Shown here one piece after another: positions 28,018 through 38,852 of a stretch of 43,833 bases of DNA. A model generated the notes under the pieces. That model did not search any database. It was given only the letters and a program-made list of their open reading frames with translations, and was not told the DNA's origin. Position numbers and translations under genes: made by a program. This stretch comes from Ensifer sp. LC11 (GTDB taxonomy: Bacteria > Pseudomonadota > Alphaproteobacteria > Rhizobiales > Rhizobiaceae), in NCBI RefSeq assembly GCF_001695835.1, contig NZ_MBSO01000036.1, positions 1-43,833 on the forward strand, written 5' to 3'. The first letter of the stretch is position 1, and each line of letters starts with the position of its first letter.

Positions 28018-29067
28018 ATGAAGAACGGACCCAGGCAGCGGGCGACCATTATCGACGTGGCGGAACGAGCTGGAGTTTCGAAGAGCACAGTTGCGCGCGT
28101 CCTTGCCGGCTCCAGCAATATTTCCGACGAAGCGCGCGATCGTGTGCTGAGGGCGGTCTCGGCCACGGGCTACGAGCGCAATCATCTGGCCGTCGGCATG
28201 CGTTCGGGCCGCAGCGGTCTCTTGGGCCTCGTCATTCCAGACATCACCAACCCTTTCTGGGCCGAGGTTGCCCGCGGCGCACAGGACCGCGCAGCGAAGG
28301 ACGACATTTCGCTCCTCGTCTTCTCGTCCGATTGGGATGCGGGCAAAGAAGCGACCCATCTGCGCGCGTTGCGCCGGGCGCGCGTCGATGGCGCGATCAT
28401 CAATCCCGTCGCGGACAACTTCGATGATCTGGATCGTTTCGGATTGCCCTTCGTCTTCATCGGCTCCAGCGCCGAGCGGTTTCCGGACACCTTGAGTGTC
28501 GGGTCGGATATCGCCCAGGCCGTTCGTCTCGGCATGGATATTCTGTTGCAGCGGGGCCATCCCGCGCCGGCTCTGATGCTCGGCCCACGGTCGCGCCTGG
28601 CGCGCGCCCGGTTCCTACGTGCCGTGCACGAGCATTGCGTTGCACGGGACGTGGATCCTGAGATCCTCCTGGTTGAAGAATCTGACTACACGGTTGAAGG
28701 CGGCCGAAGGGCAATGGGCCGCTTGCTCGCCGGGACATGGAGAGGCAGTCGCGCCGTTTTTGTCGCCAACGATCTGATGGCGCTCGGTGCCATGATCGCC
28801 GTTCGCGAAGCAGGCCTCCGGTGCCCGGAAGACATTTCCATTTTGGGTTTTGACGGCATTCCCGCGGGCGCATTCTCGTGGCCGGGCCTGACGACGATCG
28901 AAAAGCCCGGCCGCCAGATCGGCGTTCGCGCGGTCGAATGCCTGCTCGCTCAAATTGCCGGCCGCCCCGAGCACGGCCGGATTTTTCTGCCGTGCCGCCT
29001 GGTGGAGCGCGGCTCGCTCGCCGACGTTTCGGCCTCCGCACCCATTCGGGTGGCGGCTGGGAGGTAA
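28018..29067 (+). CDS. LacI-family transcriptional regulator
   Basis: This 349-residue regulator is read from the ATG at 28018, six bases after GGGAGGA. The helix-turn-helix is ATIIDVAERAGVSKSTVARV (residues 9-28), followed by the hinge helix LAGSSNISDEARDRV. The periplasmic-binding-like ligand domain shows LGLVIPDITNPFWAEVARGA, and near the end ISILGFDGIPAGAFSWPGLT. Such repressors release DNA when a sugar-like ligand binds. The gene lies two bases ahead of the first permease gene, and two matching palindromes flank it (27958 and 29117), so it very likely represses this whole operon. Confidence 0.93.
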   Translation: MKNGPRQRATIIDVAERAGVSKSTVARVLAGSSNISDEARDRVLRAVSATGYERNHLAVGMRSGRSGLLGLVIPDITNPFWAEVARGAQDRAAKDDISLLVFSSDWDAGKEATHLRALRRARVDGAIINPVADNFDDLDRFGLPFVFIGSSAERFPDTLSVGSDIAQAVRLGMDILLQRGHPAPALMLGPRSRLARARFLRAVHEHCVARDVDPEILLVEESDYTVEGGRRAMGRLLAGTWRGSRAVFVANDLMALGAMIAVREAGLRCPEDISILGFDGIPAGAFSWPGLTTIEKPGRQIGVRAVECLLAQIAGRPEHGRIFLPCRLVERGSLADVSASAPIRVAAGR

Positions 29068-29069
29068 AC

Positions 29070-36799: not shown

Positions 36800-38013
36800 G
36801 CGGGTTTTCCAAGCGACATTTCGACCCCGCCGCCAAGGGGCCGCTTGCCGGCACCCGCGTCCTGGATCTGTCGCGCCTTGTTGCCGGCAACATGCTGTCG
36901 CTGCAGCTTGCCGATGCCGGTGCCGACGTCATCAAGATCGAGCCGCCGGCGGGCGATCCACTGCGCGACTGGAAGGACGACGGCCACTCGCTCTATTGGA
37001 AAACCTATAGCCGCAACAAACGCTCCGTCGTGTTGAACCTCCGGCAGGAGGCGGCGATGGCAGCACTCTGGGCGCTGATCGAGACAGCCGACATCTTCAT
37101 CGAGAATTTCCGGCCAGGAACACTGGAGCGCATGGGACTTTCACCGGAAGCGCTGCATTCCCGCAACCCCAACCTGATCATCGTGCGTATCTCGGGCTTC
37201 GGCCAGACCGGTCCCTACGCGCAGTTCCCCGGCTTCGGCACGATCGTCGAGGGCATGAGCGGTTTTGCCTATCGAACCGGATTTCCCGACCGCGAACCTG
37301 TGTTGCCGCCTTTGGCGCTTGCCGACATGATTGCCGGCGTCTACGGAAGTTCTGCGACCGTGACGGCGCTGTTGGCACGCGATCGCGGCTACGCAAAAGG
37401 ACAGGTAATCGACCTGTCGCTGCTGGAGCCGATGTTTTCGGTGCTTGGACCGGAAGCCGCGATCTATCAGACGACCGGCAAGATCAAGGAGCGCGTTGGA
37501 AGCGCCTCGAACACGGCTGCGCCGCGCAACGTCTACCGCTGCCGCGACGGCAAATACGTCGCACTTTCCGGCTCGACGCCGCAAGTTGCCCGGCGCATCT
37601 TTGAAATCATCGGCCGCGCCGACATGAACGAGGACCCGCGCTTCGCAACCAATTCCGAACGCGTCAGGAACCGCGACCTGGTCGACGAGGCCGTCGGCGA
37701 CTGGTTCGCTAGGCACGACCACGACGAGGCGCTGCAGATCATGCGTGACGCCGGCGCGACGGTCGGGCCGATCTACAACATCGCCGATGCGAGCACCGAC
37801 CCGCACTTTGCCGAACGAGAGATCATCGTCGACGTGGAGGACGCCGAGTTCGGCAGCCTGCCGATGCACAACATAGTGCCACGGCTTTCGGAGACGCCAG
37901 GTGTCTGGCGCAGGCCAGCGCCAGCCCTTGGCGAGCACACAGCCGAGGTCCTGGCGGAAGCGGGGCTGGACGCAGGCGCCATCGAGCGCGTTCTGGAGGG
38001 ACAGGCGGCATGA
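36796..38013 (+). CDS. Class III (CaiB/BaiF) CoA-transferase
   Basis: This 405-residue class III CoA-transferase has the N-terminal block GPLAGTRVLDLSRLVAGNML, ADAGADVIKIEPPAGDPLRD and NKRSVVLNLR. The middle segment SGFGQTGPYAQFPGFGTIVE is typical, and the GQVIDLSLLEPMF region holds the conserved acidic residue (Asp206) usually assigned as nucleophile. It transfers CoA to a carboxylic acid. The overlap with both neighbours and the following CitE-like lyase fit a pair that activates a hydroxy dicarboxylate and then splits it, as in malyl- or citramalyl-CoA metabolism. The acid itself is unknown. Confidence 0.92.
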   Translation: MSGFSKRHFDPAAKGPLAGTRVLDLSRLVAGNMLSLQLADAGADVIKIEPPAGDPLRDWKDDGHSLYWKTYSRNKRSVVLNLRQEAAMAALWALIETADIFIENFRPGTLERMGLSPEALHSRNPNLIIVRISGFGQTGPYAQFPGFGTIVEGMSGFAYRTGFPDREPVLPPLALADMIAGVYGSSATVTALLARDRGYAKGQVIDLSLLEPMFSVLGPEAAIYQTTGKIKERVGSASNTAAPRNVYRCRDGKYVALSGSTPQVARRIFEIIGRADMNEDPRFATNSERVRNRDLVDEAVGDWFARHDHDEALQIMRDAGATVGPIYNIADASTDPHFAEREIIVDVEDAEFGSLPMHNIVPRLSETPGVWRRPAPALGEHTAEVLAEAGLDAGAIERVLEGQAA

Positions 38014-38852
38014 GATTGCGCTCCCTTCTCTATGTGCCGGCGTCGTCCGAGCGCTTCATCGCCAAGGCGCATGAGCGCGGCGCGGATGCGATCATCCTCG
38101 ACCTTGAGGATTCGGTTGCACCGGACCAGAAGCAGGCGGCGCGGGACGGGTTGAAGGAGGCGGTGGTGCGGGTAGGGCGCGGCGGCGCGACCGTCTTCGT
38201 CCGCGTCAATTCGGCCCCGGAGATGCGGATGGCCGATGCCGAAGCAGCCTGCCTTGCCGGAGCCTTCGGGCTTTATGTCGCGAAAACTGAGTTGCCCGGA
38301 GAGCTGGACGCACTCGCCGCGCATCTCGCGCCGATCGAACGGCAGATCGGTCGGGCGCCGATGGCGTTCGTGCCACTGCTGGAAGATGCCAGCGCCGTTC
38401 TCGAAGCCCGCGCGATCGCTCGCGTTCAGCGCGTGATCGGCCTTGCGGCAGGCGGTGAAGACATCGCGACCAGCCTGGGAGCGGAGCCGTTGCCGGAGGT
38501 GCTGCGCCTTCCGAAGCTGCTGGTCCACCTCGCAGCCAAGGCCGAGGGCAAGCTCTCCTTTGGTATGCTTCTGACAATTGCCGACTACCAGCGGCTCGAC
38601 GCCATAGAGTCGGCTGCCCGCGAGGCGAAGGCCCATGGCTTCGATGGTGCGAGCTGTATCCACCCGTCCGTGATTCCCGTGCTCAATGCGTCCTTTTCTC
38701 CGAGGGCCGAGTTGATTGCCTGGGCAAAAGCCGTGATCGCCGCAGCGCGGGCCACGGGACAGGGCGCCTTCGAATTGAACGGCGTCATGGTCGACGCGCC
38801 GGTGATCGCCCGCGCGCTCAACGTGCTCGAACAGGCAAACGAGTTTCAGTAG
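38010..38852 (+). CDS. CitE/HpcH-HpaI-type aldolase/lyase
   Basis: This 280-residue TIM-barrel lyase is of the CitE group. RSLLYVPASSERFIAKAHER at the N-terminus and ADAIILDLEDSVAPDQK are signature blocks, with Glu/Asp as magnesium ligands, then VFVRVNSAPE with the substrate arginine. GFDGASCIHPSVIPVLNASF near the C-terminus is also diagnostic. Relatives cleave malyl-CoA, citramalyl-CoA or citryl units to acetyl-CoA plus an oxo acid. Its start overlaps the CoA-transferase stop (ATGA), so the two steps are coupled. The gene ends two bases before the truncated IS110 transposase begins. Confidence 0.9.
   Translation: MRLRSLLYVPASSERFIAKAHERGADAIILDLEDSVAPDQKQAARDGLKEAVVRVGRGGATVFVRVNSAPEMRMADAEAACLAGAFGLYVAKTELPGELDALAAHLAPIERQIGRAPMAFVPLLEDASAVLEARAIARVQRVIGLAAGGEDIATSLGAEPLPEVLRLPKLLVHLAAKAEGKLSFGMLLTIADYQRLDAIESAAREAKAHGFDGASCIHPSVIPVLNASFSPRAELIAWAKAVIAAARATGQGAFELNGVMVDAPVIARALNVLEQANEFQ

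What the first reader, a model, noticed from the sequence alone, without database searches (positions are those of the whole stretch)
28018..38852. Operon joining a sugar-type ABC importer, two ADP-ribosylglycohydrolase-fold proteins, a CoA-transferase and a CitE-type lyase
Nine genes on one strand (LacI, two permeases, binding protein, two glycohydrolase-fold proteins, ATPase, class III CoA-transferase, CitE/HpcH lyase) overlap or nearly touch, and two LacI palindromes mark their control. ADP-ribosylglycohydrolases are known for reversing protein ADP-ribosylation, but here they sit with an importer and carbon-catabolic enzymes. I infer import of a glycosylated or ribosylated hydroxy acid, cleavage by the two hydrolases, CoA activation of the acid and C-C cleavage to acetyl-CoA plus an oxo acid. 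I know of no described pathway with this set. No sugar kinase is present, so the sugar part must enter central metabolism elsewhere.
Basis: partly seen in the sequence, partly recalled or inferred. Interest (0 to 1): 0.88.

Follow-up and report, generated by a model that had tools for sequence, protein, structure and literature searches.

The report
Importer operon for glycosylated citrate-like acids
A soil bacterium carries a set of genes, found in related form in three bacterial phyla, that most likely imports a sugar joined to a citrate-like acid, cuts the sugar off with enzymes of a family known mainly for undoing a protein modification, and burns both halves; the exact compound is still unknown.

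Summary
Confirmed: nine tightly packed genes at 28018-38852 with two LacI-type palindromes. The importer, a 699-aa ADP-ribosylhydrolase-fold protein (ADPRH_L) and a second such hydrolase recur in Alphaproteobacteria, Clostridia and Spirochaetota. Of 61 genome-contig loci with full flanks, 58 carry an acid-cleaving module of one of three kinds: class III CoA-transferase with CitE-type lyase (42; six more have the transferase alone), CitD-CitE-CitF (5) or AtuA with DUF4387 (5). A ribokinase-like gene joins the set in many clostridial and some spirochaetal loci, an Agrobacterium plasmid and one same-order genome, where all ten genes form one run. ADPRH_L is an ARH/DraG-type domain plus two lectin-like domains, the last like CBM66. 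Nine of nine full-flank relatives outside its supported clade lack an acid module. Related CoA-transferase/CitE pairs elsewhere sit beside other importers, one a tricarboxylate transporter. Best reading: uptake and breakdown of a glycoside, probably a riboside, of a citrate- or citramalate-like hydroxy acid. Compound and every enzymatic step are untested.

The parts
27959..27972 (.). LacI-type operator palindrome 1, ending 45 bases before the lacI start
   Evidence: conserved in relatives
28018..29067 (+). LacI-family regulator
29070..30035 (+). ABC importer permease A (CUT1 type)
29117..29130 (.). LacI-type operator palindrome 2, inside the start of permease A
   Evidence: conserved
30035..30937 (+). 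ABC importer permease B (start at 30035 by analogy with the annotated orthologue; the ORF opens at 30029)
30987..32408 (+). Solute-binding protein, nearest solved relatives by sequence AlgQ1/AlgQ2
32398..33603 (+). ADPRH_S: ADP-ribosylhydrolase-fold hydrolase, 401 aa
33620..35719 (+). ADPRH_L: ADP-ribosylhydrolase-fold domain (about residues 1-348), beta-sandwich (about 359-529) and CBM66-like domain (534-699)
35750..36799 (+). ABC importer ATPase, UgpC/MalK type
36796..38013 (+). Class III CoA-transferase
38010..38852 (+). CitE/HpcH-type C-C lyase

Best explanation
The operon is a LacI-controlled route for a glycoside in which a furanose, most likely ribose, is joined to a citrate- or citramalate-like hydroxy acid. 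Steps: (1) the AlgQ-like binding protein, two permeases and the ATPase import the intact acidic glycoside; (2) ADPRH_L and ADPRH_S, using the metal site that in ADP-ribosylhydrolases holds the terminal ribose (recalled), cut the glycosidic bond inside the cell, the lectin-like domains of ADPRH_L helping to hold the substrate; (3) the sugar is phosphorylated by a ribokinase-like enzyme, encoded in the operon in some relatives and elsewhere in the genome here; (4) the freed acid is made a CoA thioester by the class III CoA-transferase; (5) the CitE-type lyase splits it into acetyl-CoA and an oxo acid. Removing the sugar first would be required if it sits on the hydroxyl that the lyase needs. Shown by sequence: the gene set, its conservation, predicted folds, metal-site motifs and operators. 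Inferred: every substrate and reaction.
Against: No enzyme of the operon was found to have a characterised close relative; CitE (125 bits against 443), three sister-operon kinases (238, 247 and 279 against 299.65) and the CoA-transferase (274 against 750) miss the curated cut-offs that would suggest a substrate. Three of 61 full-flank loci (L056, L086, L089), three of six plasmid loci (L108-L110) and L164 lack any acid module; in the tree 8 of the 39 rows inside the clade have none. Seven Ensifer-genus genomes lack CitE in the operon; all seven have a 54-56% homologue elsewhere, but so do 2 of 9 genomes that keep it, and in three of five fetched regions (L189-L191) that homologue belongs to a paralogous operon with its own CoA-transferase. 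An intact kinase was found in only two of the rhizobial-type operons, L108 and L163; L065 and L109 hold only fragments. One linked CitF (L153) groups with unlinked CitF copies, and L178 is on a long, unplaced branch. Ribose is inferred only from the kinase family and from what the hydrolase fold usually binds.
Confidence: 0.6

Rival explanations
1. Two separate nutrients: the importer, hydrolases and kinase handle an unrelated glycoside (nucleoside-like or oligosaccharide), while the acid module degrades a different acid that merely occurs in the same niche and shares the regulator.
For: Some loci lack the acid module (L056, L086, L089, L108-L110, L164). Distant ADPRH_L homologues lack any acid module (9 of 9 full-flank loci), and seven of those nine have importer permeases nearby.
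Against: No separate acid importer is among the nine genes, and three different acid modules attach to the same hydrolase clade in different phyla, which one shared substrate explains more simply.
Confidence: 0.15
2. The hydrolases act on a different glycoside, for example an acidic oligosaccharide or another furanoside, and the acid that meets the CoA-transferase is derived from the sugar rather than being its aglycone.
For: The binding protein is nearest to AlgQ1/AlgQ2 (that these bind alginate oligosaccharides is recalled). ADPRH_L carries a CBM66-like domain; CBM66 comes from a levanase.
Against: No dehydrogenase or dehydratase that would make an acid from a sugar is among the nine genes or the recurrent partner families scanned. 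CitDEF in Clostridia points to a citrate- or citramalate-type acid.
Confidence: 0.15
3. The two proteins are regulatory de-ADP-ribosylases (DraG-like) that switch the importer or lyase on.
For: Same fold family and intact metal-site motifs.
Against: No ADP-ribosyltransferase domain was found in the operon genes scanned (not every neighbour was scanned). There are two or three divergent copies per operon, lectin-like domains, and a linked kinase in many loci. ADPRH_S reaches only 51 bits against the DraG cut-off of 337.
Confidence: 0.05
4. Salvage of NAD, ADP-ribose or nucleosides: the hydrolases release ribose from such compounds.
For: Kinase of the ribokinase type in sister operons.
Against: No nucleobase, phosphatase or Nudix gene among the nine genes or the recurrent partner families scanned, and a citrate-type lyase has no evident role there.
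Confidence: 0.05

Closest known systems
ADP-ribosylhydrolases (ARH3, DraG, MJ1187; PF03747)
   Same: Catalytic fold and metal-site motifs of both hydrolases
   Different: Genomic setting is catabolic; ADPRH_L adds two beta-sandwich domains; identity to the solved members listed is 13-22%
CBM66 of Bacillus subtilis levanase
   Different: Here fused to an ARH-type domain; ligand unknown
Citrate lyase / citramalate lyase complex CitDEF
   Same: Clostridial versions of the locus carry CitD, CitE and CitF
   Different: The window uses a class III CoA-transferase with a CitE-type lyase; clostridial CitE (L088) stays under the CitE equivalog cut-off
CoA-transferase/CitE-type lyase pairs next to other importers
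   Same: CoA-transferase 57-76% and CitE 49-61% identical in the five compared
   Different: No ADP-ribosylhydrolase beside them; importers are an iron/2-aminoethylphosphonate-type ABC system or a tripartite tricarboxylate transporter
AlgQ1/AlgQ2 binding proteins
   Same: Nearest solved relatives of the solute-binding protein by sequence (E 6e-18)
   Different: Ligand unknown here

Membership tests
ADP-ribosylhydrolase (ARH/DraG) family | PF03747 above the curated cut-off | tested here: met
   143 and 170 bits against 26.2
ADP-ribosylhydrolase (ARH/DraG) family | Two Asp-rich metal-site motifs conserved (that they hold metal and ribose is recalled) | tested here: met
   D75 D76 / D320 T321 D322 in 11 of 11 ADPRH_S; D58-60 / D282 T283 D284 in 28 of 28 ADPRH_L; ADPRH_S aligned with ARH3 and DraG at these motifs
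ADP-ribosylhydrolase (ARH/DraG) family | Removes ADP-ribose from a protein or small molecule | not testable with these tools
   needs an enzyme assay
DraG equivalog (TIGR02662) | Score over the equivalog cut-off | tested here: not met
   ADPRH_S 51.4 bits against 337
CBM66 | Fold of the carbohydrate-binding module | tested here: met
CBM66 | Binds terminal fructofuranose (recalled) | not testable with these tools
   needs binding data
Class III CoA-transferase | PF02515 over the whole protein | tested here: met
   398.5 bits, profile 1-366 of 366
Class III CoA-transferase | Catalytic aspartate aligned with a characterised member | not tested
   no residue-level alignment was made
Characterised class III CoA-transferase equivalogs (succinate--glutarate, oxalate, mesaconate) | Score over the equivalog cut-offs | tested here: not met
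   best 274 against 750
CitE, RipC and malyl-CoA lyase equivalogs | Score over the equivalog cut-offs | tested here: not met
   125 against 443, 100 against 375, 27 against 500
Citrate lyase complex (clostridial loci) | CitD, CitE and CitF encoded together | tested here: met
   L085, L087, L088, L090, L092, L153; CitF of L088 over its cut-off
Citrate lyase complex (clostridial loci) | CitE over the citE equivalog cut-off | tested here: not met
   L088 CitE 296.6 against 443.4
Ribokinase equivalog (TIGR02152), kinases of sister operons | Score over the cut-off | tested here: not met
   L108 279.4, L098 237.9, L088 246.6 against 299.65; the others were not scored
CUT1 sugar ABC importer | Binding protein, two permeases and MalK/UgpC-type ATPase in one operon | tested here: met

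The most novel reading that the evidence does not exclude
A branch of the ADP-ribosylhydrolase superfamily, fused to carbohydrate-binding modules, has become a catabolic glycosidase for ribosides of citrate-type acids (compounds of the kind of ribocitrin, a Streptomyces dextransucrase inhibitor), and bacteria of three phyla have joined it to different acetate-releasing lyases to burn both halves.
Probability: 0.35. Interest if true: 0.85.

Novelty: new variant of a known kind. Interest (0 to 1): 0.72.

Why it matters
If true, a protein family known for reversing ADP-ribosylation has catabolic members that act on small glycosides. That would change how a large set of genes should be read: 7639 of the 7999 scored homologues of ADPRH_L reach E 1e-30 (a capped search; among the 120 listed, those with a name are mostly called ADP-ribosylglycohydrolase or hypothetical protein). 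It would also point to an overlooked class of nutrients, sugars joined to citrate-like acids. The swap of three lyase modules on one conserved core narrows the substrate to a short list that can be assayed at once.

Tried and rejected
Regulatory de-ADP-ribosylation, NAD/nucleoside salvage and chance neighbourhood were considered and set aside (see the rivals). The claim that the 7 Ensifer-genus genomes without CitE in the operon simply moved it was weakened by a control: 2 of 9 genomes with the operon copy hold the same second homologue. In three of five fetched regions (L189-L191) it lies in or beside a paralogous operon with its own CoA-transferase; in L188 and L192 it stands beside an IclR-type gene with no CoA-transferase hit in the 18 kb. 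The kinase hits in L065, L109 and L091 turned out to be fragments and are not counted as kinases; still lists L065 and L109 as having one. The kinase-family hit of L085 is remote (23% identity). The operator pattern alone, within the window and with 3 mismatches, was not significant. The hypothesis that all linked CitF form one clade failed for L153 and L178; the other five do (100/100). The ADPRH_S model is only moderate (mean pLDDT 73).

Literature (open-licence PMC papers only). Searches for the gene set returned no listed paper whose title or abstract start describes it: 1 paper; 35, 20 listed; 102, 15 listed; 0; 0; 2. None of those was opened. DUF4387 gave no paper. The search returned 2,510 papers, the 25 listed being unrelated Portuguese-language or public-health texts. 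Ribosylated citrate: one paper, passages read; the structure paper of ribocitrin (Takashio 1982) was seen only as a title in its reference list, so the linkage, and even citrate versus isocitrate, stay unverified. PMC4847356: passages.

Counting limits. Loci were gathered through ADPRH_L, so all frequencies are conditional on it. The search for related loci kept the best 80 of 133 relatives. Of its 79 loci, 18 are cut by contig ends and were left out of the 58-of-61 count; 8 of those 18 show an acid module or part of one, 10 show none in what is left. Plasmid and genome-search loci partly repeat species in genome contigs and are reported apart. Outside the genus, 10 of 135 family and order relatives had an ADPRH_L match and I fetched 9 of these 10. 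In the class of G156, 71 of 391 genomes matched at E 1e-20, mostly over the catalytic part alone; I fetched the 8 other genomes with long matches, of which 2 (G439, G299) have an acid module and 2 (G487, G170) are cut short. In the phylum of G163, 6 of 296 matched at E 1e-60, two of them already in hand; of the four others fetched, two have an acid module (L177, L178), and two (L179, L176) are cut short and show none.
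Full report
WHAT IS THERE. The nine genes exist at the stated place, on one strand, with overlaps or short gaps. Families: LacI; two CUT1-type permeases; a solute-binding protein whose nearest solved relatives by sequence are AlgQ1 and AlgQ2 (E 6e-18); a 401-aa and a 699-aa protein with the ADP_ribosyl_GH domain (143 and 170 bits, cut-off 26.2); a UgpC-type ATPase; a class III CoA-transferase; and a CitE/HpcH-type lyase. 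An N-terminally truncated IS110 transposase frame follows 16 bases later. The window lies on contig 36 of a 6.2-Mb genome. All 15 same-genus genomes sampled hold a near full-length ADPRH_L, against 10 of the 135 other relatives. By matching coordinates and record names the genus is Ensifer, some records being named Sinorhizobium.

CONSERVATION. A scan of genome contigs with ADPRH_L gave 79 loci (best 80 of 133 relatives). Sixty-one have full flanks (at least 6 kb before and 4 kb after). Of these, 58 carry an acid-cleaving module within 11 kb: 42 CoA-transferase+CitE, 6 CoA-transferase only, 5 CitD-CitE-CitF, 5 AtuA+DUF4387; 3 have none (L056, L086, L089). In a clustering of called genes from L028-L112 and the window, the nine operon families recur in 50 to 82 loci and no other family in more than 10; the kinase, AtuA and CitF families are in 9, 7 and 5. 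Six plasmid loci: three with CoA-transferase (L107, L111, L112; L111 without CitE), one where an annotated ribokinase takes the place of CoA-transferase and CitE (L108), and two with neither an acid module nor an intact kinase (L109, L110).

THREE ARCHITECTURES. Alphaproteobacteria, mostly Rhizobiales: LacI-PermA-PermB-SBP-ADPRH_S-ADPRH_L-(ATPase)-CoA-transferase-CitE. Clostridia: LacI-PermA-PermB-SBP-ADPRH2, then CitD-CitE-CitF on the same strand in four loci (L085, L087, L088, L090) or beside it on the other strand (L092); ADPRH_L is divergent in these, and in L083 and L089 all genes lie on one strand. A kinase gene is present in 5 of the 7 full-flank clostridial loci of genome contigs, CitDEF in 5 of 7. 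Spirochaetota: AtuA-DUF4387-PermA-PermB-SBP-ADPRH_L-ADPRH2, usually next to a LacI gene, with an intact kinase in L098, L100 and L102. Linking forms: L163, a same-order genome, has the full rhizobial run plus a PfkB kinase between ATPase and CoA-transferase, gene ends overlapping; L153, a clostridial-class genome, has both ADPRH_S (50% identical to the window's) and ADPRH2, with ADPRH_L, kinase and CitDEF; L157/L158 (one genome of that class, two contigs) has the AtuA form with kinase; L178 (phylum of the spirochaetal G163) has a CitD-CitE fusion and CitF. CitF of L088 passes the NCBIfam citrate lyase alpha cut-off (563.8 against 501.45), while its CitE is under the equivalog cut-off. The ten clostridial genomes have 2 or 3 CitF matches each and the seven spirochaetal ones 0 or 1 (13 of 17 have any), so a chance neighbour within 10 kb would be a matter of a few per cent per locus (my estimate).

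TREE. In a tree of 49 ADPRH_L rows chosen from the loci, 39 rows lie on one side of a branch with support 100/99: 31 with an acid module and 8 without. The 10 rows on the other side (31-44% identical at best to the two ADPRH_L queries) have none, nine of them with full flanks (root at the midpoint). AtuA rows are one group (100/99). Across the four labels 8 changes are needed, against a mean of 25 for shuffled labels. So the acid modules belong to a sub-family of importer-linked hydrolases, and were exchanged while hydrolase and importer stayed.

THE ACID. Each of the three modules holds an enzyme named for, or of a family able to perform, release of an acetyl unit from a beta-hydroxy acid. 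[quoted passage not shown] CitDEF is citrate lyase, and citramalate lyase has the same kind of subunits (recalled). Related CoA-transferase/CitE pairs outside the operon give a natural comparison. They were found through the second CitE homologue of Ensifer-genus genomes and a plasmid search with it. In an Ensifer-genus genome (L190), Shinella, Pararhizobium and Aureimonas they sit as regulator-SBP-permease-ATPase-CoA-transferase-CitE-2-hydroxyacid dehydrogenase-RraA, with no ADP-ribosylhydrolase in the stretch. In Marinibacterium they sit with a tripartite tricarboxylate transporter. CoA-transferase identities to the window's are 57-76%, CitE 49-61%. A simple reading is that the same kind of acid comes in free in those operons and glycosylated here.

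THE SUGAR. Three sister-operon kinases score 238, 247 and 279 bits on the ribokinase model, below its cut-off of 299.65, and five of five aligned keep the GGKG and AGDTF signatures (their roles are recalled). The window's genome has one match to this model over the cut-off (304 bits, contig 67) and a second at 266 bits. Ribose is thus likely but not proven.

REGULATION. GGNAACGTTNCC occurs exactly twice in 55 of 58 loci with ADPRH_S, lacI and permease A and enough upstream sequence; in the window the sites lie just before lacI and inside the start of permease A. The exceptions are L046 and L164 (one site) and L153 (none). Spirochaetal-type loci L093, L095, L098, L177 and L178 carry the site too, close to lacI.

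CANDIDATE COMPOUND. Ribocitrin, a Streptomyces dextransucrase inhibitor, is named in PMC13136089 (passages). Its name suggests a ribose-citrate conjugate; I recall it as a ribosylated tricarboxylic acid but could not check the linkage. It is offered as an example of the class, not as the identified substrate.

VERDICT. What is shown is anatomy, conservation, predicted folds and operators. Each substrate and reaction is inferred. The open-licence literature searches listed no description of this set.

Noticed in passing
window 38869-39732: IS110-type transposase frame lacking about 60 N-terminal profile positions, starting 16 bases after the CitE gene.
   Followed up: partly
L190 6924-15666 (also L189, L191, L193, L194, L195): Paralogous operon: IclR (or HTH) regulator, SBP, fused permease, ATPase, CoA-transferase 70-76% identical to the window's, CitE-type lyase, D-2-hydroxyacid dehydrogenase, RraA-like protein. 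No ADP-ribosylhydrolase; substrate unknown.
   Followed up: partly
L196 6972-13673: Marinibacterium plasmid: IclR, CoA-transferase, CitE-type lyase, TIM-barrel metal-dependent hydrolase and a tripartite tricarboxylate transporter.
   Followed up: partly
L165, L167-L170: Rhizobiaceae operons with LacI, permeases, ATPase and an ADPRH_L homologue of 33-35% identity, without second hydrolase or acid module: apparently a related importer-hydrolase system for another glycoside.
   Followed up: partly
L065 11420-11644; L109 6078-6272; L091 7644-7718: Fragments of a ribokinase-like gene next to the operon, suggesting that the kinase was once part of it in these lineages.
   Followed up: yes
L178 11468-12682: CitD-like and CitE-like domains fused in one protein, followed by CitF.
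   Followed up: no
L188 7226-8926 and the matching stretch of L192: A CitE homologue beside an IclR-type regulator, with no CoA-transferase hit in the 18 kb, in genomes whose hydrolase operon has the CoA-transferase but no CitE.
   Followed up: partly
window 25307-27000: Open frame (26575-27000, +) resembling the start of a LysR-type regulator, apparently cut short, beside a minus-strand gene that looks like a urea-type ABC binding protein; both names by eye, no search run.
   Followed up: no
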